The notes under the pieces: model-generated
The model's input: only the letters and a program-made list of their open reading frames with translations
Told to the model about the DNA's origin: nothing
Database searches by the model: none
Shown: positions 5,957 through 31,024 of the stretch, piece after piece
How the letters are laid out: every line of letters begins with the position of its first letter
How positions within the stretch are numbered: the stretch's first letter is position 1
Made by a program: the position numbers and the translations under genes
DNA from: Bermanella marisrubri
GTDB lineage: Bacteria; Pseudomonadota; Gammaproteobacteria; Pseudomonadales; Oceanobacteraceae
Length of the DNA stretch: 64,000 nucleotides
Direction: 5' to 3'
NCBI RefSeq assembly: GCF_012295615.1
Contig: NZ_CP051183.1
Coordinates: 1,121,001 to 1,185,000 of the forward strand

Positions 5957-6343
5957 TCAGCTTGCTTGGGCTAGCTCAGTGCTGTGCTGGGTATTTCGAT
6001 AAACGGCCGGTGAAACTCCGACCCATTTTTTAAATGCATGGCGGAAGTTCGCCACATCGCTAAAGCCTAACTTGTCTGCAATTTCTTCCGTCGTATATTG
6101 ACTGTCCGTCAGATAATATTTCGCCCGTTCACTTCGAAAATCATCCAATAGCTTTTGATAGCTGGTTCCCATGTTAGCTAACTGTCGGCGGAGAGTACGA
6201 CCACTCATATTGAAAGCGCTAGCAAGCATTGGGAAGTTCGGGAAATCACCCATGGAGGTGATTAGTATTTGTTCAATCTCTTCAATGACTTTCTCGCCGC
6301 GAACGCAGGGTTTCATCTGACTGATATTCATCATTGTCACCAC
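5957..6343 (-). CDS. Small AraC-family DNA-binding protein (HTH domain only)
   Basis: Only the AraC/XylS double helix-turn-helix domain is present, within a protein of about 125-128 residues. The first HTH is around FPMLASAFNMSGRTLRRQL and the second around TTEEIADKLGFSDVANFRHAF, ending in the family signature segment FKKWVGVSPAVYR. The usual ~200-residue ligand or dimerisation domain is missing. An in-frame stop codon (TAA) lies 18 bases before the first GTG, so the gene cannot extend further in this frame. Starts at 6343 (GTG), 6340 (GTG), 6334 or 6331 (ATG) are possible. It may be a true stand-alone HTH protein, like MarA/SoxS, or the remnant of a longer regulator. Confidence 0.8.
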   Translation of the reverse strand: MVTMMNISQMKPCVRGEKVIEEIEQILITSMGDFPNFPMLASAFNMSGRTLRRQLANMGTSYQKLLDDFRSERAKYYLTDSQYTTEEIADKLGFSDVANFRHAFKKWVGVSPAVYRNTQHSTELAQAS

Positions 6344-6554
6344 TTTATTGTTATTGATTTATCCGGACGTCGATAATTTTACCGATCACAAGAGTAACTC
6401 TAAGTGGCTGTTCGTGAAGTCCCCAGTTTTTCCGTTTCGCAATACCAAAAAGTACTATGCAAAAACTAAAAATCTTTTAAAAACAAATGGTTATGTAGAT
6501 TATTTTGGTGCTGACGAATTATTGAAATTTCACTATTTGCGTGGTTCGATTGCG

Positions 6555-7577
6555 TCAATGTGCCGTTTTTGTCTGCTGTTGACGATATTGTGAGGGAGAT
6601 AATCCAGTCAGTTCTTTAAAGGCTCGATTAAATGAACTCAGAGTTCGATAACCCACATCGAGAGAAATATTCAAGATTGCCGTATCAGGTTCTTGCTGAA
6701 GGCGCATGCAGGCCTCTTCAATCCGTAGGCGATTGATGTAATCGTTAAAGTTTCGATACCCTAGGGTTTGATTAATCAATGCTCGCGTCTTGTATTCAGG
6801 GAGTCCTAGGCTGTCCGCTAGTTGCTTAAGTGTGAGGTGTTCTGTTCTATAAAACCCAGACTCCATAAGAGTATGAAGTGACTTAACCTCATTACTCTCA
6901 GAGATATCTATGCGTTCAGGGCTGGCTTTGACAGAACTTTCATCTTGTAAGTCGCCATGAACATGTCCGAAGAGAACGCCTTTGCGGCCATGCAATAGAA
7001 AGAAAGAGCAAACTAATGAAATAACACAGACACTTAAGTAAGGAAGCCAAACTCCTACCCAGCCGGTATTCATGGGGACAATCACAAATAATACGCTAAG
7101 TCCGACACCCACCATCACAGCGCTTCGCAATTGCCGACTGGACTCCACTAAATCATCGGACCAATTTGTTATCACTGTCCACAGCCCCATAATGATTAAC
7201 AGGTATTCACAGTAGGAGGGTAACACCCATGCAAGAAAGACCCACTCTGTATAGAGCTGGTTGCTAATACCAATATGGTTGGCGATAGCGGGGGGAATAA
7301 AACTGTATAGTGCGATGGCACCAGCAAGGCTGAATATTTTTGGACGATAAGCAAAAGCCAATTGGCACAATAACCAAAATAACGCAGGCACCATGGTATA
7401 AATGTCGCGAGCAATCTTTGATAACCATTCGGGAAGCATTGGTTGCAACAGGAACATTGCACCTGTGAATAATACAGCCACGAAGGCCTTGCCCACGTTA
7501 AGATGGCCAAAATCCCTGCAAATGATCATGCCCAAGATGCAAAGGCAGCCCAATGCAAAGCCAGCGAAAAACAGCAA
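6555..7577 (-). CDS. Membrane-anchored AraC-family regulator
   Basis: The first ~200 residues hold about six to seven hydrophobic segments (for example FAGFALGCLCILGMIIC, VGLSVLFVIVPM and LPYLSVCVISLVCSFFLLH). A soluble linker follows, then an AraC/XylS HTH domain at about residues 235-335 containing LTLKQLADSLGLPEY and ISLDVGYRTLSSFNRAFKEL. This architecture is known for membrane-bound AraC regulators, which may sense an envelope or lipid signal directly. The listed start at 7577 is TTG with a weak ribosome site; a later internal start would lose the first helix. It lies 61 bases after the metalloprotease gene on the same strand. Its target is unknown. Confidence 0.82.
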   Translation of the reverse strand: MLFFAGFALGCLCILGMIICRDFGHLNVGKAFVAVLFTGAMFLLQPMLPEWLSKIARDIYTMVPALFWLLCQLAFAYRPKIFSLAGAIALYSFIPPAIANHIGISNQLYTEWVFLAWVLPSYCEYLLIIMGLWTVITNWSDDLVESSRQLRSAVMVGVGLSVLFVIVPMNTGWVGVWLPYLSVCVISLVCSFFLLHGRKGVLFGHVHGDLQDESSVKASPERIDISESNEVKSLHTLMESGFYRTEHLTLKQLADSLGLPEYKTRALINQTLGYRNFNDYINRLRIEEACMRLQQEPDTAILNISLDVGYRTLSSFNRAFKELTGLSPSQYRQQQTKTAH

Positions 7578-7638
7578 GTGACAACCTATTTATTATTATT
7601 TAAACGAGTGCCAATCATAAGTGATTGGCACGATTGGC

Positions 7639-10464
7639 TCAACGCTTGGTATTGAAGCGTGGTGTTACCAATGAAGCGATTACAAATACAAGCAACCAGC
7701 TTAAGCTTCCGCCTCCTGAACTACCAATGACGGTTATCGTATCGTCACTAGCACGTTTGCTTTGTAAAAAGACAAGATAGTTGCTGCCTTCAATAAACTG
7801 GATCGTTAAGGTTTCAGCATCAGGGTGACTGAAGCGTAAGCTTTCTAACTCACCAAGCGCATTATTGAAGCTGTAGTCGAATGAAGATTTATTATCGGAA
7901 ACTTCGTTCACGGTTGCAGAGACCTCAGATCCGTCGCTCAGAATCAGGGTTAATTCAGGGATATCAGTCGCGAAATTCAAGCTACCGGTTGCTTCAATAT
8001 GGCCGCGGATACTGAGCAGAGTGCCGCCAGTTTGCAGCAGTACCGTTTGCTGCAAGACACTAGATTGCAAATCAATTGATTGCGTTTGGTAACCACTGGC
8101 ACTGATGCTTGCTGAATAATCAGTGCTATCGTCCGGTAGCGTCACGGTGATAGAACCACTGTCATTGCTTTGATACACAGACTCTATATTGAAAGAGGTA
8201 AGGGCGGATGTTTCCAGTGTGAGTGTTGCATCTGTAATCGCATTACCTTGATCATTGTTGATCTGTATAGAGTGAGGTCGGCTAGGGAACATGGTGGCAT
8301 TGATGTTGAGTCCACTGTCCACCTGAATATTGACAGGTGTAATTGATGACAAGGTTCCCACATCTAAATGGACACTGGTGGCGTTGTTCGTATCGGCGTC
8401 GTTTTGAATGGTTACGTCCGAAATTACAGCACCATTGATGTCTTTGAAACTCAATGCTTGTTCACTTGATACTAAGTTGAATACGTCGTTGGCTGCAGCT
8501 CCTATGACCGTGAGCGTTTGAGTGTTCGTTCCCTCTAACAAAGAAGAAGCGCTCAAGCTTATTACTGGATCACGCTCTAGATAGATATCGTAGCTGGCAC
8601 CAGACGATTTATTGGTAAGCGTTAACGTATAGGTTCCCGCAAATTGTCCCGAACTGGGTAAGCCGATTTGCAGTAAGGAAGGACTTACGCCGAGAAGCGA
8701 GTTTAGATTCATGCCATTCAGTGACAGAGCATAGTTGTAGTTGTTGTTCAGGTTGCTGATATCAATGCTGACATTTGTGCTCGCCATGCTACCCGTATCA
8801 TTTGGGTTCAATTGTACGCCGTTTACGGTAATACTTGGGTTATCTTCTATGGTGATAGCGAAGCTAACATTGGCTGTGCCACTGTTGCCATCGTCAGCAA
8901 TCACTTCTACGGTTTGTGCACTAGCACTGCTGCTATTGGCCGTAATGTCGAGTGTGTTTGAGGTTATGTTACAGCTGAGAGCAGCGCCGCATTGGTTAAT
9001 ACTAAAACTAAGAGTATCGTCCTCCACATCGCTTGCGTAGTTCGTTAACGTTATGCTGAGTGTATTTCCTACAACGATGGATTGATCACTAATGTTTGAC
9101 CAAGTGGGATCATCGTTAACTGGGTTAATAGTGAGGTTGAAGTTGTCGCTAGCTGAACCGCCTTGTCCGTCGGTGACTGTGATCGTTACCGAATTGGTAT
9201 TAGCGTAATAATTTTGTGCTGGCGTTAATGTTAATCCCGTGCCGTCATCGTTGATGTCACAAGTGACATTGCTCGGACAACTAGTGATGCTATAAGTCAA
9301 TGTATCACCATCGACATCGCTGCCCCAGCCACTGGCGTCTAAGCCTGTAATTGCAACATCTTCGTTCGTTGTTTGATCCACTGCTGTGATCGTAGGCGCG
9401 GTGTTGTTAATCGAGACGCTCCAACCGATGTCCTGTAATAGGAATTTTGCTAAACCTAAACTCAAGGTTCCTTCGGTGTATTGCGGCTCCATTAATTCAT
9501 TAGGACTAACCGCTGTATCAAAGTGGCTTACGCTAGAACCGCCTTCTACTGGGTTGGGCGCATACATCTGAATAAGATCGCCAGACGTAAACGTGCCTGA
9601 GCCATCTTTGTCGGCAAAACCTGTGCTGGTATACGCAACGGCATTGGTGTTCACGTTGGTGCCATCCCACAGTAGCCGATTGCCGCTAATGGCTGATGCT
9701 GCGCGATCCGCATCGCTTTGACTAGGATCCATCCAAGAGCGTCCAGTTACATCATCGAATAAATACACGCTGTAAATATCATCAAAAGATGCGTTGGCTT
9801 TAGCTCCAGTACTTTTATTCACCAGGCTTGCAAAGCCAAAACCGTGGGTCATTTCATGCAAGAGAACCGTGACGAAACCGATATAATTGCTTGGCGGGGC
9901 GTCAAACCCATAATACCAACCATTACTATTTTCTAGGCAGTTTGTTGTCCCAATGTTGCTATTGAACTGCGCTGTGATGTCACTGATGCTGGGGTCTTGG
10001 TCGCTGCCAAGTATGGCATTCATCAAACCAATGGGATAAAACGTATTGTCTCTTAGCCCGCCAGGAGCGGGGGAACCATAGCCAGAGTTGGAAGTGGCTC
10101 CTGCGCTGCCAAGGGTAGCTTGGTTAGTACTACAGGTAAGGCCAGCGAATTGAGCATCGACTTCAACGACCACATTTGATTCGATTTCAGCGGCGACGAT
10201 TTCGGCCGCTTTAATAAAGCTCAACTTCCGTTGTGCACCAACTGTAGTACCATTATTGCCCCCTTCGGCGCTGACGATGGTGTTATCGGTGAAGCCTGAT
10301 ATAAAATTCAGTTTAATCGTCGAGGCTGTTCCGCTCACAGTACAACTCGTACCATTGTTTGCGCCTGTACTTTCCGCACTGCTAGAGGATGGGCATACAG
10401 CGGCGGAGACCGAATTAGGTAAAATGGTGACTAGGAAACCCACTAGAAGGATTAAGCGAGACAT
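7639..10464 (-). CDS. Secreted metalloprotease with cadherin-like repeats and GlyGly-CTERM tail
   Basis: The ATG at 10464 (ribosome site AAGGG) gives a 941-residue protein with signal peptide MSRLILLVGFL... cleaved near VSAA. A zinc-protease motif HEMTHGFGF starts at about residue 203; His203, Glu204 and His207 are the expected catalytic residues. The catalytic part ends with LGLAKFLLQDIGWS, as in other secreted zinc proteases. Two tandem cadherin/Ig-like domains follow (around residues 350-545), each rich in Asp/Asn and ending in DDPTW- or DNPSI-type linkers. The C-terminus is Gly-rich, then a membrane helix, then basic residues, which is the GlyGly-CTERM pattern. Export by Sec and type II secretion, with rhombosortase processing, is inferred. 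Confidence 0.85.
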   Translation of the reverse strand: MSRLILLVGFLVTILPNSVSAAVCPSSSSAESTGANNGTSCTVSGTASTIKLNFISGFTDNTIVSAEGGNNGTTVGAQRKLSFIKAAEIVAAEIESNVVVEVDAQFAGLTCSTNQATLGSAGATSNSGYGSPAPGGLRDNTFYPIGLMNAILGSDQDPSISDITAQFNSNIGTTNCLENSNGWYYGFDAPPSNYIGFVTVLLHEMTHGFGFASLVNKSTGAKANASFDDIYSVYLFDDVTGRSWMDPSQSDADRAASAISGNRLLWDGTNVNTNAVAYTSTGFADKDGSGTFTSGDLIQMYAPNPVEGGSSVSHFDTAVSPNELMEPQYTEGTLSLGLAKFLLQDIGWSVSINNTAPTITAVDQTTNEDVAITGLDASGWGSDVDGDTLTYSITSCPSNVTCDINDDGTGLTLTPAQNYYANTNSVTITVTDGQGGSASDNFNLTINPVNDDPTWSNISDQSIVVGNTLSITLTNYASDVEDDTLSFSINQCGAALSCNITSNTLDITANSSSASAQTVEVIADDGNSGTANVSFAITIEDNPSITVNGVQLNPNDTGSMASTNVSIDISNLNNNYNYALSLNGMNLNSLLGVSPSLLQIGLPSSGQFAGTYTLTLTNKSSGASYDIYLERDPVISLSASSLLEGTNTQTLTVIGAAANDVFNLVSSEQALSFKDINGAVISDVTIQNDADTNNATSVHLDVGTLSSITPVNIQVDSGLNINATMFPSRPHSIQINNDQGNAITDATLTLETSALTSFNIESVYQSNDSGSITVTLPDDSTDYSASISASGYQTQSIDLQSSVLQQTVLLQTGGTLLSIRGHIEATGSLNFATDIPELTLILSDGSEVSATVNEVSDNKSSFDYSFNNALGELESLRFSHPDAETLTIQFIEGSNYLVFLQSKRASDDTITVIGSSGGGSLSWLLVFVIASLVTPRFNTKR

Positions 10465-18902: not shown

Positions 18903-21212
18903 TTGAAATATTGGTTGTTGTTTTTAGTGTTAGTGAACTCTGTGGCGTTGGCTCAAGAATCTCCTTCAGCGAACACTTCCCCCCTGTTTTATTGGGTACC
19001 ACCGGAAGAACGTGAAATCAGCCTTACTGAGGTTATGCATGAGGCGCAATGGACCGTTGTTAATGGGGAGCTCAACTTTGGCTACTTGCAAAAAGAACTT
19101 TGGGTCATGCAAACCATTAATTTCAATATGAAGTCCGATTGGGTTGTGCATATTCCGAATCCATTTTTAGATTACCTTGATCTATACGTTCTCCAAAATC
19201 GGGACATAGTGACAGAGCTGCACACGGGGGATGCAAGACCATTTAATCAACGAACGGTGAAAGTGGCTGATTTTGTTGCGGGTTTTACTGCGGAATCAGA
19301 TAGGGAATATATCCTTGTGGCTAGGGTACGGACTCAGGGAACCATGATGGTGCCCATTCATTGGATGGGAGAGGAGGAGTACGCAGAGCGTCTGGCCATC
19401 GATCAAATTATTTATGGTGGTTATTATGGTGCGTTGATCATTATCGCACTTTACCATCTTTTCATCTTTTTGGTGGTACGTGAGACAGGCTACATCTTTT
19501 ATGTAGCCTCCATGTTTGCGTTTGTTTTATTGCAACTGGCCTATGATGGCCGAGGATTCGCCTGGTTTTGGCCAAGTAATCCCGAATTTAATGCGATTGC
19601 GTTTCCATTATTTTACAGTCTGTATCAGTTTATCAATTTGATGTTTATTTCGGTGTTCTTGCGCCTAAGACAGAATAATCCAAATTGGCATAAATACTTA
19701 CTGGTTTTAAAAGCGATCGTAATAATCAACAGTGTTCTTATATTGGCACTGCCTTATCATACGATTACGCCAATAATTATTATCACAGGCATTACTGGTT
19801 TGATTTCCGGTGTAGTGAGTGGTGCATTCCGTTGGTGGCAAGGCTTTACCCCAGCTCGTTATTTTACGATCGCGTGGTTATTTTTCTTGGGTGGACTATT
19901 GCTTGCCAACTTCCGTGGATTCGGCATGGTGGAAACATCCTGGGTTAGCCAGTACGGTTACCTGATTGGTTCTTTAATGCTTGCCTTATTCTTAGCGTTT
20001 TCTCTGGCTGAACGTATTAAAAGTGCCAATGTTGCAAAGCGTATAACAGAAAAAAAATTAATAGACAGTCAGCAACAGCATTTATCTGTCTTAAAACGAT
20101 ATCAAGAGCTTTATGAAAACGCTCCCATTGGTCACTTTCAGAGTAACAGCCAATACCAACTTACCAGTGTCAATCTTGCTTGTGCCCGTTTATTTGGGTT
20201 TGATCATCCCAGAGAAATGTTGGAGCAAGTAAAAGACATTCGAAAATATTTAATTTCCGATTTTTCATATTTTCAGGATCGAGTAAGAGATACCCGAAAA
20301 GAGGGCGTGCAGAAAGATGTCGAAATAAAAATTAAGGACATCGTCGGAAAGCAACGATGGTTGAGTATTAATATGCGTTACTGGCCGGAAGGGGATACCT
20401 ACGAAGGTTCTATCCAAGATGTAACAGAACGGAAGATTGCTGACGAGCTACGAAGAGATTTGGATCAAGAACGATTAAATATTATGGAGCGATTCTCATT
20501 GGGGATGGCCGAGGAGATTGATACACCCTTAGGCTCAAATGTTGCTGCTACGGGTTTTATACAAGAAGGTTTAGATAGCTTATATGCTAAGAAGCAGCAA
20601 GGCATAGCCACAATTGAAGATTATGAGCAGCTGTTAGAGATTTGTCGTCAGTCACTGCAATTGACCTCTCGCAACCAGAGGCGAGTGATCCGAGTCGTCA
20701 AACGCTTCAGGGAAGTGGCCTCGCAGCACATAGGTCTCGTCGCTAGTCACTTCAACTTAGTGAATGCAATTAATCAAACAGTGGAAGGCCAACGTTGGAA
20801 AATGGCTGGTTGGCGTGTGTATGTTGATGGTCCAGAGAAGCTAACCATTTATAGTTATAAGCGCGCAATCAGCGCCATCTTGATCCAGCTTATTGACAAT
20901 GCGTTAGCCCATAGTGAGGCTGACAAAAAAGACACACCGACCATCTGGATTAGAGTAGAAATATTGGACGATTCTCGAATCAGTTTAACGGTAACTGACA
21001 ACGGTAAGGGGGTTGATAGAGAAACCGCTAAAGATCTAGGTCAGCCTTTCTTTACCACTAAAAAGGGACCGGATGGTCATATCGGATTGGGGCTATACAT
21101 GATTTACAACCTTACTAATCGATCACTCAATGGTAGGCTCCTATTTCCCATTACAGGGGAAGGTTTTAGTGTTCAGATTCATATTCCAATATCGCTACCT
21201 AACAAACAATGA
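18903..21212 (+). CDS. 7TM-DISM hybrid sensor kinase lacking the phospho-acceptor histidine
   Basis: A 769-residue membrane sensor starting at TTG (no in-frame ATG gives the signal peptide). Order: signal peptide (1-18), periplasmic 7TMR-DISM extracellular domain (~20-165), seven membrane helices (~170-370), coiled linker, PAS domain (~395-515), then a kinase core. The dimerisation helix reads GMAEEIDTPLG. In the family this is M-A-H-E-[IL]-N-T-P-L-G, so the phospho-acceptor His is Glu537 (codon GAG at 20511-20513). The ATPase domain looks intact: N box LIDNALAHS (Asn665), G1 DNGKG (699-703), F box PFFTTK, G2 GLGLY. It may bind ATP but not autophosphorylate in the usual way. No response regulator is adjacent. 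Confidence 0.88.
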   Translation: MKYWLLFLVLVNSVALAQESPSANTSPLFYWVPPEEREISLTEVMHEAQWTVVNGELNFGYLQKELWVMQTINFNMKSDWVVHIPNPFLDYLDLYVLQNRDIVTELHTGDARPFNQRTVKVADFVAGFTAESDREYILVARVRTQGTMMVPIHWMGEEEYAERLAIDQIIYGGYYGALIIIALYHLFIFLVVRETGYIFYVASMFAFVLLQLAYDGRGFAWFWPSNPEFNAIAFPLFYSLYQFINLMFISVFLRLRQNNPNWHKYLLVLKAIVIINSVLILALPYHTITPIIIITGITGLISGVVSGAFRWWQGFTPARYFTIAWLFFLGGLLLANFRGFGMVETSWVSQYGYLIGSLMLALFLAFSLAERIKSANVAKRITEKKLIDSQQQHLSVLKRYQELYENAPIGHFQSNSQYQLTSVNLACARLFGFDHPREMLEQVKDIRKYLISDFSYFQDRVRDTRKEGVQKDVEIKIKDIVGKQRWLSINMRYWPEGDTYEGSIQDVTERKIADELRRDLDQERLNIMERFSLGMAEEIDTPLGSNVAATGFIQEGLDSLYAKKQQGIATIEDYEQLLEICRQSLQLTSRNQRRVIRVVKRFREVASQHIGLVASHFNLVNAINQTVEGQRWKMAGWRVYVDGPEKLTIYSYKRAISAILIQLIDNALAHSEADKKDTPTIWIRVEILDDSRISLTVTDNGKGVDRETAKDLGQPFFTTKKGPDGHIGLGLYMIYNLTNRSLNGRLLFPITGEGFSVQIHIPISLPNKQ

Positions 21213-21340: not shown

Positions 21341-21712
21341 ATGGCCATGCATACCAATATATTTACTTTTATCGCTATAGCGCTATTCATTGCTGCGTGT
21401 GATTCACATCCCGACCGCTCTTTATTAGCACAACAAGCAAAGCAATATAGCCCTCAAGATCCTCACTTGAAGCAAATTTATCAGTCTAGCTGCAAAAACT
21501 GTCATACATTAAAGGACACGGGGGCTCCACTTACCGGTGATACCTCCACTTGGCATGACTTGCTTAATCAATACGGAAAAGACCTACTATTGCAAAACAT
21601 TATTAATGGTAAAGGTGGTATGCCACCGTTTGGCTTGTGTATGGAGTGCCAAGAACAAGACTTTGTGGCACTCATTGATTTTATGGCGCAGCCAATGGGA
21701 GTAGCAGAGTAA
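21341..21712 (+). CDS. Cytochrome c5-type lipoprotein
   Basis: A 123-residue single-haem cytochrome c. The lipobox FIAAC (Cys20) after a short hydrophobic signal predicts a lipid-anchored periplasmic protein. The haem site is CKNCH (Cys51, Cys54, His55). The sixth ligand is probably Met94 in GKGGMPPFGLCMEC. Cys100 and Cys103 in that segment match the extra cysteines of cytochrome c5. Its stop overlaps the start of the FAD oxidase by one base (TAATG), implying coupled translation and an electron-acceptor role for that oxidase (inference). ATG at 21347 is an alternative start. The upstream 128 bases are very A-rich before the start. Confidence 0.88.
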   Translation: MAMHTNIFTFIAIALFIAACDSHPDRSLLAQQAKQYSPQDPHLKQIYQSSCKNCHTLKDTGAPLTGDTSTWHDLLNQYGKDLLLQNIINGKGGMPPFGLCMECQEQDFVALIDFMAQPMGVAE

Positions 21713-23067
21713 TGAAAAGGCGTTCATTCTTGCAAAACTTGGTTCTAGCGGGATCAGCAATGGCGTTACCTGTTACGCAGCAAGCCCATGCAAAACCACT
21801 GCCTTGGAGGAATTGGTCAGGATCACAAGTTTGTTATCCAGAAAATCGTTTGGCGCCGACATCTGTGGCCGAATTAAGTCAAATTATCCAAGCTACTCGA
21901 GGAAATATTAGAGCAGTAGGAGCAGGCCATAGTTTCAGTCCGTTGGTGCCAACTAATGATACTATGATTACGCTTAGCCGTTTGAACGGCATCGTCAGTG
22001 TTGATCAAGCGAATACAACGGCGACTATTTGGGCTGGTACGCGTTTAGGTGACATAGGCGAGCCTTTAGCAGCAGAAAATCAAGCGCTACAAAACATGCC
22101 TGATATTGATGAACAGACACTTGCAGGCTCTTTAGCAACCGCTACACACGGTACCGGTGAGTCATTAGGATGTTTATCGAGTTTTATAACATCTATGCAA
22201 TTGGTCACTTCAACTGGAGAAACGTTGGAGTGTTCGTCTACAAAAAACGCTGACGTATTTCAGGCTGCTAAAGTTGGTCTTGGTAGTTTAGGTATCGTCA
22301 CCCAAGTGACTTTACAAAATCAAAAGCCTTATCGTTTAAAACGCGAGACTTCTTGGATGTCCATTGAAGACATCTTGGCAAATACCGAACAGTTAGCCTC
22401 GAATAACCGCAATTATGAGTTCTATTACATTCCATTCACTGGAATGGGGTTCATTGACGTGCAAAACGTGACGGAAGAGCCAGTGTCGGTGACGGAAAAA
22501 ATCGATCAAAATGATGGCGCAAATGATTTGAAAACCGCTCGGGATTTATTGAGCTGGAGCTCTACGTTACGAGAGTTAGTATTAGGTACGTATATTAAAA
22601 CCTTGCCTGATGAAGTCACGGTAGCGGCCAGTTGGCAGAACTATGCCAGTGAGCGTAATGTGCGTTTTAATGAAATGGAATATCACTTGCCACGCGAAAA
22701 CCTTGTTCCGGCGTTTGAAGAAATTCGTAAGCTGGTCGAGACGCAATTTCCTCGTGTTTTCTTTCCATTTGAAGTTCGTTATGTGAAACAGGATGATGCT
22801 TGGCTAAGTCCGTTTAATGGTCGTGAGACTGCTTCAATTGCAGTGCATCGTTTTTTCCAAGAGGATCACTTACCGTTATTTAAAGCAGTTGAGCCGATCT
22901 TCCGAAAATATCATGGTCGCCCTCATTGGGGGAAATTTAATACCATGGAAGCTCAAGATTTCGCCAAGCATTACGAACATTGGAATGATTTTAAAGAGGT
23001 TCGCCGTTCGTTAGACCCAAATGGAAAGTTTATGAATCGGTATTTAAAGTCCTTGTTTACGGCTTAA
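21712..23067 (+). CDS. Tat-exported FAD-linked sugar-lactone-oxidase-like protein
   Basis: A 451-residue flavoprotein of the VAO/aldonolactone oxidase family (L-gulonolactone and D-arabinono-1,4-lactone oxidases). The N-terminus KRRSFLQ followed by a hydrophobic stretch and an AHA cleavage site is a twin-arginine signal. The FAD-binding domain has GAGHSFSPL; His73 is at the position that often links covalently to FAD. LAGSLATATHGTG binds the flavin pyrophosphate. The C-terminal ALO domain has the family motif HWGK (405-408). A periplasmic enzyme oxidising a polyol, aldonolactone or related hydroxy compound and passing electrons to the preceding cytochrome c is inferred. The substrate is unknown. 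Confidence 0.87.
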   Translation: MKRRSFLQNLVLAGSAMALPVTQQAHAKPLPWRNWSGSQVCYPENRLAPTSVAELSQIIQATRGNIRAVGAGHSFSPLVPTNDTMITLSRLNGIVSVDQANTTATIWAGTRLGDIGEPLAAENQALQNMPDIDEQTLAGSLATATHGTGESLGCLSSFITSMQLVTSTGETLECSSTKNADVFQAAKVGLGSLGIVTQVTLQNQKPYRLKRETSWMSIEDILANTEQLASNNRNYEFYYIPFTGMGFIDVQNVTEEPVSVTEKIDQNDGANDLKTARDLLSWSSTLRELVLGTYIKTLPDEVTVAASWQNYASERNVRFNEMEYHLPRENLVPAFEEIRKLVETQFPRVFFPFEVRYVKQDDAWLSPFNGRETASIAVHRFFQEDHLPLFKAVEPIFRKYHGRPHWGKFNTMEAQDFAKHYEHWNDFKEVRRSLDPNGKFMNRYLKSLFTA

Positions 23068-23079
23068 TGGGAAACCAAA

Positions 23080-24348
23080 ATGAAACTTTCTCGACGCCAG
23101 TTTATGCTGCTATCGTCTGGTACCGCTGCTGCAGTTGCTTTGCCATTTATAAAACCCTCGGATAACGGAGAGGGCGGACATTCACCCTATTTTCAAGAGA
23201 TATCTAAAGCTTTAAAAGAACAGAGTATTGGCACACCGCGAATGCTGGTGGATTATGATCAGTTATTGCAAAACGTGAAAACGTTAACAGGTCATATTAA
23301 ACCTCGTTTTGACTATCGAATAGTGGCGAAGTCCTTGCCTTCGATTGAGTTATTACAGGTGGTGATGAAAGCGGCGGATACCAATCGCTTAATGCTCTTT
23401 CACCAACCCTTTTTAAGCCAGGTTGCTAAGCGATTGCCTGACGCGGACATCTTGATGGGCAAGCCTATGCCGATACAGGCTGTAGAACGTTTTTATCAAG
23501 ATGGTATTCATAATGATTTTGTGGCCGCACAGCAAATTCAGTGGCTAGTGGATTCGCCTCAGCGTTTAGAGCAATACCGCGAATTTGCGGAGAGTAACAA
23601 ACTGTCCATGGCAATCAATATCGAACTGGATGTGGGTTTACACCGTGGGGGGATAACCCGTGATAGCGATTTAATCAGTATGCTAGATATGATCGAAACC
23701 AGCGATACATTAAATTTTTCTGGTTTTATGGGTTACGAGCCCCACATCGGAAAGGTGCCAGGTGACGTGTTAGATCATCGCGACAAAGCCATGGCTGAGT
23801 ATCAGCATTATGTGCAATTAACAGAACAGCATTTAAAGCGAAGCATTCAACATCTAACGCTAAACGCTGGTGGTAGTCCTACTTATCAATACTACAATCA
23901 AGGGCAATGGCCCATGAATGAGTTAAGCGCTGGTTCGTGCTTGGTGAAACCAACGGATTTTGATTTAGCTAGTTTACAAGACCATGAGCCTGCCTGTTAT
24001 ATCGCTAGCCCTGTCATAAAGCAGTTAGATCAAGCCGAGATTCCGGGAATTGATTTTATGGGGGAGCTACTCAGTAGCTGGGACCCAAATTTAAAGCAAG
24101 CTTTTTTCATTTATGGCGGTTATTGGAAGGCAAAGCCAGAGTCACCTAAGGGGCTCAAACTCAACCCAGTATATGGACGCTCCACTAATCAAGAAATGCT
24201 TAATGGCAGTGATAGCGTGCAACTCAAACAGGATGATTATGTGTTCTTGCGACCAACGCAAAGTGAATCAGTGATGCTGCAGTTTGGGGATTTATTGGTC
24301 TATCGGAAAGGCCAACTGATTGACCATTGGCCTATTTTAAAAGGTTAA
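23080..24348 (+). CDS. Tat-exported PLP-dependent fold-III enzyme (D-threonine aldolase/DSD1-like)
   Basis: A 422-residue protein with a clear twin-arginine signal (SRRQFMLL, then a hydrophobic stretch). The body is an alanine-racemase N-terminal TIM barrel: the opening MLVDYDQLLQNV and FDYRIVAKSLPS carry the probable PLP lysine, Lys84. Later parts (LNAGGSPTYQYY near residues 265-276 and the C-terminal beta-domain with DYVFLRPTQSE) resemble D-threonine aldolase and eukaryotic-type D-serine dehydratase. Export of a folded PLP enzyme fits the Tat route. It lies 12 bases after the FAD oxidase and probably shares its transcript. Reaction and substrate are unknown; a D-hydroxy amino acid is a reasonable guess. 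Confidence 0.82.
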   Translation: MKLSRRQFMLLSSGTAAAVALPFIKPSDNGEGGHSPYFQEISKALKEQSIGTPRMLVDYDQLLQNVKTLTGHIKPRFDYRIVAKSLPSIELLQVVMKAADTNRLMLFHQPFLSQVAKRLPDADILMGKPMPIQAVERFYQDGIHNDFVAAQQIQWLVDSPQRLEQYREFAESNKLSMAINIELDVGLHRGGITRDSDLISMLDMIETSDTLNFSGFMGYEPHIGKVPGDVLDHRDKAMAEYQHYVQLTEQHLKRSIQHLTLNAGGSPTYQYYNQGQWPMNELSAGSCLVKPTDFDLASLQDHEPACYIASPVIKQLDQAEIPGIDFMGELLSSWDPNLKQAFFIYGGYWKAKPESPKGLKLNPVYGRSTNQEMLNGSDSVQLKQDDYVFLRPTQSESVMLQFGDLLVYRKGQLIDHWPILKG

Positions 24349-24359
24349 GCAAAGGCACT

Positions 24360-24713
24360 TTAAAGGCCTTCCACTTTGCGTAGGTTTGATTGGTGGCGTT
24401 CAATGTAGCGTAAGTCTGCTAGATGGCTTTTTAATTCTTGCCACAATAAAAAACACTGCTTGTCTTCTTGAGCAGAACGACGAAGAACAAACAAAGCTTG
24501 CTCAATTTCAGCCGTTATATTTTCCCATTGCTCGGTTTGATAGTGACACATGGCGCGGTAGCCAGTATAAAGTGGTTGCTGCGTATAGCGGCAATCCCAG
24601 TACTCTAGATGCTGAATGCAACGCAGACACTCTTGAAAATGACGTGCGCGGTACTGCTTTTTAACTTGCCAAGCATAATAACGAGCAAATAGGGTATGTA
24701 GCGCAAACATCAT
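24360..24713 (-). CDS. Hypothetical protein, TPR-like helices
   Basis: Function not recognised. The ATG at 24713 is preferred because AGGAG lies eight bases upstream; the GTG at 24719 is too close to it. The ~117-residue product has an amphipathic or weakly hydrophobic N-terminus (FALHTLFARYYAWQ) and then helices rich in Gln, Glu, Tyr, Trp and Cys. The spacing (YRARHFQECLRCIQHLEYW, then LYTGYRAMCHYQTEQW) recalls tetratricopeptide-type repeats. It is convergent with the PLP enzyme gene and has no informative neighbour. Confidence 0.62.
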   Translation of the reverse strand: MMFALHTLFARYYAWQVKKQYRARHFQECLRCIQHLEYWDCRYTQQPLYTGYRAMCHYQTEQWENITAEIEQALFVLRRSAQEDKQCFLLWQELKSHLADLRYIERHQSNLRKVEGL

Positions 24714-24842
24714 GATCACAGCTCCTGTTACAGGCTTTCATCAGCCCTGCATTAATCAGTATAGACAGATTTCAGAGTTGGCAATCAGGTGTATTGTGAC
24801 AGTTTTAGAATGAGCAGCTGTATAAATAACAGTGCTTATACC

Positions 24843-29113: not shown

Positions 29114-29611
29114 AAATCCTACCCTTTACCACCCTATACTTGAGTCTAGCTCAGCATAAGGTATATTTATTCGAAATGTCTAAATTAGTATTACCTAATA
29201 TAAAGGCGAAAAGAGAGATTTGCAAGAGGGCATGTAGGAGGTCGAGTTGACCGCCTGTGATAGATAGTCTTGTTAGGTGCCGCTATTTGGAGGATAAAAT
29301 TAATCTATAAAGTCGTAAAATCAGACATTTTTTGAATCATTATGACGAAAATATGAAGTTTTATTTGCATCAAATTGTAACGGATTAAATTCTTATGTGT
29401 GTAGATAGTGCATATGTATTTTCGAGAGTTTGTTAGCCTTACTTGATACAAAATAAAGTTTCATGAAATTTTATTAAACCGAAAAAAATTCTAAATTATT
29501 GTGTCCAAGAAAAATCGCTACGTTGGCACAACTACTGCTTTTTTACTCTGATTAGGTTCACGGCTAAAAATGAAAACTGATAAAGCCGCTGAATTTAATT
29601 TGGAGAACAAA
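29114..29611. other. 498-base AT-rich intergenic region, two divergent promoters expected
   Basis: It separates the reverse-strand efflux operon from the forward cyanophycinase-like gene. No convincing gene, RNA or repeat was found. One imperfect hairpin (AGGAGGTC/GACCGCCT) lies near 29236-29256. The half next to 29600 is strongly AT-rich, which could be a long 5' leader or an H-NS-type silencing target. Confidence 0.5.
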
Positions 29612-31024
29612 ATGAAAAAATTAAAACAAATAAGTTTGGCAGGAATGATTCTGGCGGCAAGTACCGTTTCTATGGCGTGTACCACGGAAGAAACTGCTTC
29701 CAATAATTCTGATCGCGATGCTACTGCAGGTATATGTTCTGGAACCACATTGCAAGGTAGCATCAGTAATCGTCGTGATGTGGATTGGTTCAGTTTCGAG
29801 GTAACGTCAGCAGGAACCATTTCAGTGACTTTGGATCACGATAGTCGTGATGACTTTGATTGGGATTTATACCCTGCGTCGGGATCCTCTATTGCAAGTG
29901 GTTCGACGAGTCAGATTCCAGAAACAGGATCAACCAGCGTTAGTAATGCGGGCACATATTATTTAAAAGTCAGTCGCTATTCGGGGACAGGCTGGTACGA
30001 CCTAACCATCAATTTCCCTCAAGGTTCTGGTGGTGATACGGGTGGCGGTAACACAGGTGGCACCGATGGTTGTGGTTATGGAGCTATTCCATCTAAACCA
30101 TCAGGTTTAACAGAGTATGTTACGGGTGATATTAATGATGTATGTCCTTCTGGCCTTATAGCGGGTAATGGTGCCTCATTATTGATGGGTGGGGGTTCAG
30201 ATGTTGACAACGCGTTTTCTCAAAACGTTGTTAATCATATTGGGTCTAGTATGGATACCGTAGTGTTACGTGCCGATGATAGCAATGGTTACAATAGTTA
30301 CCTTGCTAGCTTAATGGCCAGTGATTCAGTGATCACCTTGGTTGTCGACTCACGTACTCTTGCTAATAGTGATTATGTTGAATGGTTAGTTAAAAGTGCA
30401 GAGTTTGTTTTTGTGGCTGGCGGTGATCAATCGGCTTACTTAAACGCTTGGGAAAATACAAAGCTTTCAGCAGCACTGCAACATGTATACGACAAAGGTG
30501 GTGTCATCGGTGGAACGTCTGCGGGTATGGCAGTTATGGGTTCTACAATGTATGACCCTGATGGTATTCTCGGTGCTGTTTCTAGCGAGGTCGTTACTAA
30601 TTACTGCCATTCAACTTTGAATTTCTCTCAGGGAATGCTTTCTGTTCCAGCATTAGCCAATACAGTTACCGATACCCATTTTTACGAGCGCGATAGAATG
30701 GGACGCTCAATGGTATTCTTGGCGCGACAGGCTACCAATCATAAAGTCATCGCAGCCAGTGAGGGTACTTCGTTATTTGTTGAGGCCGATGGCAATGCCA
30801 CGGTTGTAGGTAGCTATGAAATTTATGTGTTGTATAACGGTACAAGCTCCAATCTGCAGCAAGGTCAGTGTGGATCTCCAGTTATTTATAATAATGTAAA
30901 CCGTGTGAAGCTATTGTCTGGTCAGAGTATCAACCTAAATACTTTGCAGCATAATGGTGATGAAATTGAGATTTCTATTGATGGACGCAATACTCAATTC
31001 TATAGCCCAACTTCCCCTTATTAA
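29612..31024 (+). CDS. Secreted cyanophycinase-like peptidase (S51) with PPC domain
   Basis: The ATG at 29612 follows GGAG at good spacing and gives a signal peptide (MKKLKQISLAG..., ending SMAC). It may be cleaved by signal peptidase I, or by II at Cys23. The 470-residue product has a bacterial pre-peptidase C-terminal (PPC) domain at about residues 35-136 (RRDVDWFSFEV, GTYYLKVSRY). A Gly/Thr linker follows (GGDTGGGNTGG), then a peptidase S51 domain. The nucleophile is Ser303 in IGGTSAGMAVMG. The segment DTHFYERDRMGRS matches the conserved S51 region. Cyanophycinase cuts beta-Asp-Arg dipeptides from cyanophycin, but the true substrate of this exported member is unknown. Confidence 0.85.
   Translation: MKKLKQISLAGMILAASTVSMACTTEETASNNSDRDATAGICSGTTLQGSISNRRDVDWFSFEVTSAGTISVTLDHDSRDDFDWDLYPASGSSIASGSTSQIPETGSTSVSNAGTYYLKVSRYSGTGWYDLTINFPQGSGGDTGGGNTGGTDGCGYGAIPSKPSGLTEYVTGDINDVCPSGLIAGNGASLLMGGGSDVDNAFSQNVVNHIGSSMDTVVLRADDSNGYNSYLASLMASDSVITLVVDSRTLANSDYVEWLVKSAEFVFVAGGDQSAYLNAWENTKLSAALQHVYDKGGVIGGTSAGMAVMGSTMYDPDGILGAVSSEVVTNYCHSTLNFSQGMLSVPALANTVTDTHFYERDRMGRSMVFLARQATNHKVIAASEGTSLFVEADGNATVVGSYEIYVLYNGTSSNLQQGQCGSPVIYNNVNRVKLLSGQSINLNTLQHNGDEIEISIDGRNTQFYSPTSPY

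What the first reader, a model, noticed from the sequence alone, without database searches (positions are those of the whole stretch)
21341..24348. Exported cytochrome c / FAD oxidase / PLP enzyme gene set
Three adjacent genes encode a lipoprotein cytochrome c5, a Tat-signal FAD aldonolactone-oxidase-like protein, and a Tat-signal fold-III PLP enzyme (D-threonine aldolase / D-serine dehydratase-like). The first two overlap by one base; the third is 12 bases on. Tat export fits proteins that fold around FAD or PLP first. PLP enzymes outside the cytoplasm are uncommon. Together they suggest an undescribed periplasmic pathway that acts on a chiral amino or hydroxy compound and feeds electrons to the respiratory chain. 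The sensor kinase just upstream could be its sensor.
Basis: partly seen in the sequence, partly recalled or inferred. Interest (0 to 1): 0.8.

Follow-up and report, generated by a model that had tools for sequence, protein, structure and literature searches.

The report
Periplasmic sphingosine-breakdown gene trio (SphBCD-like)
Three neighbouring genes make exported proteins that very probably oxidise and then split sphingosine-like lipids outside the cytoplasm; the same trio is already known from Pseudomonas, so this is a distant relative of a known system whose exact chemistry is still unproven.

Summary
In detail: a lipoprotein cytochrome c, a Tat-signal FAD oxidoreductase and a Tat-signal fold-III PLP enzyme form a tight operon (21341-24348). 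It is not undescribed: the same families in the same order are sphB-sphC-sphD of Pseudomonas, where sphBC are needed to deplete sphingosine; a route (SphC oxidises carbon 1, SphD cleaves) was proposed in 2014 and is unproven. The window proteins are 43-48% identical to the P. otitidis set and fall in separate clades. New support for a sphingoid-base role: of 369 genomes of the class, 7 of 9 with the PLP gene also carry a neutral ceramidase, against 8 of 360 others (p = 1.3e-9); in one, the ceramidase lies between the FAD and PLP genes. Oxidising carbon 1 of sphingosine makes carbon 2 D-configured (R), as handled by the D-threonine aldolase group, the PLP enzyme's best fold match. Yet that group's metal site (H-x-C/D) is Q-x-E in 46 of 46 aligned members. 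The upstream "sensor kinase" lacks the usual phosphoacceptor histidine; a close relative of it stands beside the set in 1 of 80 loci. Verdict: new, diverged member of a known kind.

The parts
21341..21712 (+). SphB-like lipoprotein cytochrome c, 123 aa (lipobox Cys at 21398-21400, haem motif CKNCH at 21491-21505)
   Evidence: Pfam Cytochrome_CBB3 9.8e-14; 48% identical over the aligned part to the P. otitidis cytochrome of the sphBCD locus
21712..23067 (+). SphC-like FAD oxidoreductase, 451 aa, Tat signal (residues 1-27, 21712-21792)
   Evidence: TIGR01679 479.7 bits; His73, Glu354, Arg356, His379, HWGK 405-408 in 40 of 40 aligned rows; model closest to L-galactono-1,4-lactone dehydrogenase and alditol oxidase; 43% identical to the P. 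otitidis protein
23080..24348 (+). SphD-like PLP enzyme of fold type III, 422 aa, Tat-like signal (RR at residues 5-6) without an evident cleavage site, perhaps an anchor
18903..21212 (+). Neighbouring 7TMR-DISM/PAS/HATPase protein without the usual phosphoacceptor His; probably not part of the system
   Evidence: (no HisKA hit): MAEEIDTPL here and IAKEINMPL in L061; close relative adjacent in 1 of 80 loci

Best explanation
The trio is a diverged member of the SphBCD family, a periplasmic system that removes sphingoid bases. Proposed course: (1) the Tat-exported flavoenzyme takes a hydride from carbon 1 of a sphingoid base (sphingosine, sphinganine or phytosphingosine) and makes the 2-amino-3-hydroxy aldehyde, perhaps further the acid [inferred]; (2) its reduced FAD is re-oxidised by the lipoprotein cytochrome c, which passes electrons to a terminal oxidase [inferred; genetics in P. 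aeruginosa fit a SphC-SphB pair]; (3) the PLP enzyme forms a Schiff base with the amino group of the product, now of D configuration, and cleaves C2-C3 like a D-threonine aldolase, giving a long-chain aldehyde plus glycine or aminoacetaldehyde [inferred; the two-step idea is that of LaBauve and Wargo 2014]. Shown here: the gene set, its conservation, co-occurrence with neutral ceramidase, folds and conserved residues. Substrate and products are shown neither here nor in the passages of the papers that I read. Sphingoid-base substrate about 0.8; carbon-1 oxidation about 0.6; retro-aldol step about 0.5.
For: Same three families in the same order as sphB, sphC, sphD; P. otitidis locus L093 has cytochrome-FAD-PLP followed by a convergent porin gene and an AraC regulator, as described for PAO1, and its FAD signal resembles the printed PAO1 SphC signal. 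FAD gene near the PLP gene in 70 of 80 named loci; in the class sample the FAD gene occurs in 8 of 9 PLP genomes and 0 of 11 hand-picked PLP-less ones. Neutral ceramidase in 7 of 9 PLP genomes against 8 of 360 others, Fisher p 1.3e-9; 1.4e-8 after collapsing one genus and dropping the one genome below the cut-off. Ceramidase between FAD and PLP in L011, within 8 kb (other strand) in L075 and L082, about 11 kb away in P. carbonaria with an aldehyde dehydrogenase next to it. Oxalobacteraceae L053/L068: AraC, FAD, MFS transporter, PLP, aldehyde dehydrogenase. Fold and stereochemistry. In P. aeruginosa sphBC are needed to deplete sphingosine.
Against: No biochemistry here. The window genome shows no neutral ceramidase, no SphA-like porin (no positive control in that call) and no clear SphR orthologue (best AraC 28-33%). 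Window PLP and FAD fall in other clades than the Pseudomonas sphBCD rows. The metal ligands of D-threonine aldolases are replaced in 46 of 46, so the cleavage step may differ. sphD was dispensable in PAO1 under the conditions used; deletion of sphBC in P. fluorescens WCS365 had no phenotype; C. crescentus sphBC relatives did not significantly complement. PA5326 (SphD) is not mentioned in the main text of the Tat-substrate paper that lists SphC, so export of the PLP enzyme is unproven. 10 of 80 PLP loci had no FAD gene by my filter; two of these are cut by a contig end and one (L078) does have it. Genome G210 has a PLP gene without Tat-like start and no FAD gene.
Confidence: 0.78

Rival explanations
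1. Sugar-lactone or polyol oxidation: the flavoenzyme oxidises an aldonolactone or alditol, and the PLP enzyme acts on an amino sugar or amino polyol; resemblance to SphC only reflects a large family.
For: Best solved relatives are L-galactono-1,4-lactone dehydrogenase and alditol oxidase; E-x-R and HW-x-K residues are shared with both. The 2025 paper itself warns that SphB and SphC belong to large families.
Against: Linkage to and co-occurrence with neutral ceramidase; conserved PLP partner.
Confidence: 0.1
2. Periplasmic catabolism of free D-amino acids (D-threonine, D-serine or D-3-hydroxyaspartate) by the PLP enzyme, with the flavoenzyme oxidising the released aldehyde or hydroxy acid.
Against: Metal ligands replaced in 46 of 46; PF14031 not matched in the protein or the window genome; ceramidase linkage unexplained.
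Confidence: 0.06
3. The window clade (with Marinomonas and Cellvibrionales) has the same chemistry as SphBCD but another long-chain amino alcohol as substrate, for example a bacterial or algal amino lipid.
For: Separate clades for PLP and FAD; window genome without ceramidase, SphA-like porin or clear SphR; gatekeeper Pro here, Ala or Ser in the four Pseudomonas rows of the sphBCD clade.
Against: P. carbonaria PLP, in the window's clade of the PLP tree, lies on one contig with a neutral ceramidase, though its FAD gene groups elsewhere; Marinomonas MED121 also has a ceramidase, on another contig.
Confidence: 0.25

Closest known systems
sphBCD operon of Pseudomonas aeruginosa (PA5328-PA5326)
   Same: Three families, order and strand, Tat signal on the oxidoreductase, lipoprotein cytochrome, tight spacing; the P. 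otitidis PLP protein also starts with a Tat-like MNRRKFL
   Different: 43-48% identity (measured to P. otitidis), separate clades, no sphA porin or sphR beside it, Pro instead of Ala/Ser at the flavin gatekeeper position, degenerate kinase upstream
Alditol oxidase (AldO, 2vfr; 8ot8) and L-galactono-1,4-lactone dehydrogenase (8qmy)
   Same: Fold; E-x-R and HW-x-K residues; the His next to FAD shared with AldO
   Different: Signal for export, own cytochrome c and PLP partner; Asp131 (40 of 40) where AldO has Ser in the alignment
D-threonine aldolase / D-3-hydroxyaspartate aldolase BhcC / D-threo-3-hydroxyaspartate dehydratase / D-serine dehydratase
   Same: Fold type III, 14-18% identity over about 340 residues, Schiff-base lysine
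   Different: Signal for export; metal-ligand motif H-x-C/D is Q-x-E; PF14031 signature not found
Sphingosine-1-phosphate lyase route
   Same: Would also yield a long-chain aldehyde from a sphingoid base (lyase route as told in a passage of PMC5150637)
   Different: Here oxidation instead of phosphorylation would precede cleavage, in the periplasm

Membership tests
SphBCD system | cytochrome c, ALO-type oxidoreductase and Ala_racemase_N enzyme adjacent in that order on one strand | tested here: met
   order in PAO1 from passages of PMC5150637 and PMC3900636
SphBCD system | Tat signal on SphC and lipoprotein signal on SphB | tested here: met
   Signals read from the sequence; export not measured
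SphBCD system | Phylogenetic placement with Pseudomonas SphC/SphD (1:1 orthology) | tested here: inconclusive
   Window in other clades in quick trees of 86 and 74 rows; root unknown; P. aeruginosa itself not fetched, P. otitidis used
SphBCD system | Control by SphR, the source of the name | tested here: inconclusive
   No AraC gene adjacent; 20 AraC matches listed in the genome, best 28% to P. otitidis SphR and 33% to the MED121 regulator
SphBCD system | Needed for sphingosine depletion | not testable with these tools
   Needs a strain and lipid analysis
TIGR01679 bact_FAD_ox | Score above curated cut-off | tested here: met
   479.7 against 292.25 bits
Aldonolactone oxidoreductase / alditol oxidase superfamily | Arg-Lys catalytic pair and HW-x-K motif | tested here: met
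   R356, K408, HWGK in 40 of 40; roles from passages of PMC11099136 and PMC11505616
D-threonine aldolase / D-serine dehydratase (metal-dependent) | Fold type III with Schiff-base lysine | tested here: met
D-threonine aldolase / D-serine dehydratase (metal-dependent) | Metal-ligand motif H-x-C/D | tested here: not met
   hhalign with six PF14031 proteins puts Q394/E396 on H/C; Q and E in 46 of 46
Sensor histidine kinase (upstream gene) | Phosphoacceptor His in the H-box | tested here: not met
   Glu in the window, Lys in L061; MSHEIRTPL in L039 and L044. Motifs aligned by eye

The most novel reading that the evidence does not exclude
A widespread periplasmic sphingoid-base lyase pathway that needs no kinase: oxidise carbon 1 first, which makes the amino carbon D-configured, then cleave C2-C3 with a new, exported subclass of D-aldolase whose metal site H-x-C/D has become Q-x-E. 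It would be the bacterial counterpart of the eukaryotic phosphate-then-lyase route, used by many marine bacteria.
Probability: 0.45. Interest if true: 0.66.

Novelty: new member of a known kind. Interest (0 to 1): 0.45.

Why it matters
The product of SphBC-dependent sphingosine breakdown was still unidentified in the 2025 paper, and the role of SphD unclear. The co-occurrence with neutral ceramidase across the class ties the wider family, not only Pseudomonas, to ceramide and sphingosine turnover, and the D-configuration argument gives a definite, testable product for each step. Environmental relatives offer safe enzymes for solving it and point to a route by which many marine bacteria may consume algal or animal sphingolipids.

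Tried and rejected
Upstream kinase as the sensor: rejected as a canonical sensor kinase (usual His missing; close relative adjacent in 1 of 80 loci). Against my reading: weak homologues (23-26%) lie in the flanks of 7 more loci, and in L039, L044 and L047 these keep the canonical His. L061 shares the wider block with the window: small ORF 44%, kinase 54%, and by eye from the N-termini the tRNA methyltransferase, thioesterase and RND genes, so neighbourhood there is not specific.

SphR, SphA and ceramidase in the window genome: not found or not resolvable. The ceramidase search had positives in 4 of 12 and 15 of 369 genomes, so its negative carries weight; the SphA search had no positive control within its call.

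Oxidase or dehydrogenase from the gatekeeper residue: Pro in 64 of 74, window included; Ala or Ser in the four Pseudomonas rows of the sphBCD clade, Leu in P. carbonaria. Pro is said to be usual in oxidases, but M. tuberculosis GLDH and GULLO5 are stated exceptions, so I draw no firm conclusion.

Promoter scan: 5 promoter-like sites against 7.3 expected by shuffling; none on + before 21341.

L095:2081-3310 was first taken as a D-threonine-aldolase yardstick but showed no PF14031 match, so one search was replaced. There, 12 PF14031 loci had been found; I examined 11 and 6 gave a usable ORF by a filter that itself required P-x-H-x-C/D, so the motif in those six is by selection.

Rows dropped or biased: the 80 named loci are the best of at least 547 and so biased towards the window. 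L041 repeats L040 (same organism) and L017 is the same contig as L064. Of the 10 'PLP alone' rows, L021 and L032 are cut by a contig end and L078 does have the FAD gene, lost by my longest-ORF start. The two FCP orders and several 'no Tat' rows are artefacts of such starts or contig ends. The Tat pattern was a loose regular expression without a background rate. Cytochromes were sought with the window sequence only, so 47 of 80 is a lower bound. The figure for ceramidases in flanks (3 in 86 loci, 0.11-0.33 expected) assumes 4 Mb genomes with 0.33-1 copy. Fisher tests do not correct for ancestry beyond one genus. Trees were of the quick kind; P. carbonaria is placed differently in the two.

Full report
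What is there. Searches confirm three genes on the + strand: 21341-21712, 21712-23067 and 23080-24348. The first is a lipoprotein with one c-type haem (FIAAC-D lipobox, CKNCH). The second has an RR signal and scores 479.7 bits on TIGR01679, far above its cut-off, with Pfam ALO and FAD_binding_4. The third has SRRQFM and an Ala_racemase_N domain. The window genome holds one match each for the FAD and the PLP protein at E <= 0.001.

It is a known set. A paper search led to P. aeruginosa. [quoted passage not shown] PMC11893366 (abstract, sections 19, 20 and 22, and passages) reports that sphB and sphC are needed for sphingosine depletion and for normal growth in its presence, that sphD was dispensable in those conditions, that the product was not identified and that orthologues elsewhere are hard to judge. 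Passages of PMC6085387 list PA5327 SphC among Tat substrates; PA5326 does not occur in its main text. A search for 'sphBCD' found 6 papers; passages of the June 2025 one add no mechanism.

Anchoring the comparison. The one scan of named genomes returned the best 80 of at least 547 relatives of the PLP enzyme. P. otitidis (L093) has cytochrome 6182-6580, FAD 6591-7988, PLP 8001-9278, then a porin-like gene on the other strand and an AraC gene, the arrangement told for PAO1; I take these for sphA and sphR by position. Its FAD signal (LTRRQLLQRAG...) resembles the PAO1 SphC signal printed. P. aeruginosa itself was not fetched. Window against P. otitidis: 48, 43 and 45% identity for the three proteins over the aligned parts. 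In quick trees of 86 PLP rows and 74 FAD rows the window sits with L061, Marinomonas and Cellvibrionales MAGs, apart from the Pseudomonas sphBCD rows. P. carbonaria joins the window's clade in the PLP tree but not in the FAD tree, so sets have probably been reshuffled.

Conservation. Of the 80 loci, 70 have the FAD gene nearby on the same strand by my filter: 66 within about 100 bases upstream of the PLP gene (overlaps included), 2 with a gene between, 2 downstream; 47 have a detectable cytochrome; 10 were scored as PLP alone, of which 2 are cut by contig ends and 1 (L078) does have the FAD gene. By a loose pattern 74 of 80 PLP proteins and 63 of 70 FAD proteins show a Tat-like start. In a less biased sample, 9 of 369 genomes of the class, the window's included, have the PLP gene at E <= 1e-20. 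Among the eight others the FAD gene is adjacent or, in L011, one gene away, in 4 and present in the genome in 7; with the window 8 of 9, against 0 of 11 PLP-less genomes that I picked by hand (E <= 1e-15).

Link to ceramide. The same 369 genomes searched for the neutral ceramidase family PF04734 gave 15 (14 over the cut-off): 7 of the 9 PLP genomes and 8 of the other 360, Fisher p 1.3e-9; 1.4e-8 after collapsing two genomes of one genus and dropping the one genome below cut-off. This does not correct for deeper ancestry. Ceramidases also lie next to the set: in L011 one sits between the FAD gene (cut by the contig end) and the PLP gene, on the same strand, with gaps of 57 and 95 bases; L082 and L075 carry one within 8 kb on the other strand; P. 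carbonaria has one about 11 kb from the PLP gene, followed by an aldehyde dehydrogenase and an AraC gene of the Arabinose_bd type. The window genome and G143 have none.

A probable cytoplasmic version. Glaciimonas and Collimonas (L053, L068) have AraC (33% to the P. otitidis regulator, divergent), FAD, MFS transporter, PLP and aldehyde dehydrogenase (Pfam run on one of the two for each). I see no Tat signal at the likely starts; the longest PLP frame of L068 did match my loose pattern upstream of its likely start, and their FAD branch is very long. An importer plus an aldehyde dehydrogenase is what an aldehyde-releasing pathway moved into the cytoplasm would need [inference]. TonB receptors occur within the flanks in 11 of 80 loci. 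AraC regulators, 27-28% identical to that of P. otitidis, also lie upstream of the set in the Marinomonas and Cellvibrionales relatives of the window, but not in the window.

The upstream gene. The 769-aa protein has 7TMR-DISM, PAS and HATPase regions but no HisKA hit; at the H-box it reads MAEEIDTPL, and its 54% relative in L061 IAKEINMPL, where weak kinase homologues in L039 and L044 read MSHEIRTPL. It is not shown to regulate the trio.

Verdict. A diverged SphBCD-type set, most likely for sphingoid-base oxidation in the periplasm. Interest is moderate because the known system's chemistry is open and the family-wide evidence makes it testable.

Noticed in passing
18903-21212: 7TMR-DISM/PAS/HATPase protein that looks like a sensor kinase but has Glu (Lys in relative L061) in place of the usual phosphoacceptor His, with the HATPase domain retained.
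   Followed up: partly
24360-24719 (-): Small protein of 119 aa without a Pfam match, 44% identical to the protein at the same place in L061; conserved downstream of the trio.
   Followed up: partly
29570-31024 (+): Protein with a lipoprotein-like start, a Peptidase_S51 domain (the family of cyanophycinases, recalled) and a PPC domain.
   Followed up: no
L029 15629-17266 and L137 16035-17417 (Pseudomaricurvus alkylphenolicus): A second cytochrome and FAD gene of this family a few kb from the first set, and a second PLP gene elsewhere in the genome; P. otitidis also has a second PLP gene.
   Followed up: no
L019, L053, L095: DUF1302 and DUF1329 relatives downstream of the set in three loci (Pfam run on P. 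carbonaria only), possibly lipid uptake at the outer membrane.
   Followed up: no
L088: A contig labelled Acidobacteria carries a set nearly identical to that of Hyphomonas L080, probably a binning error in that MAG.
   Followed up: no
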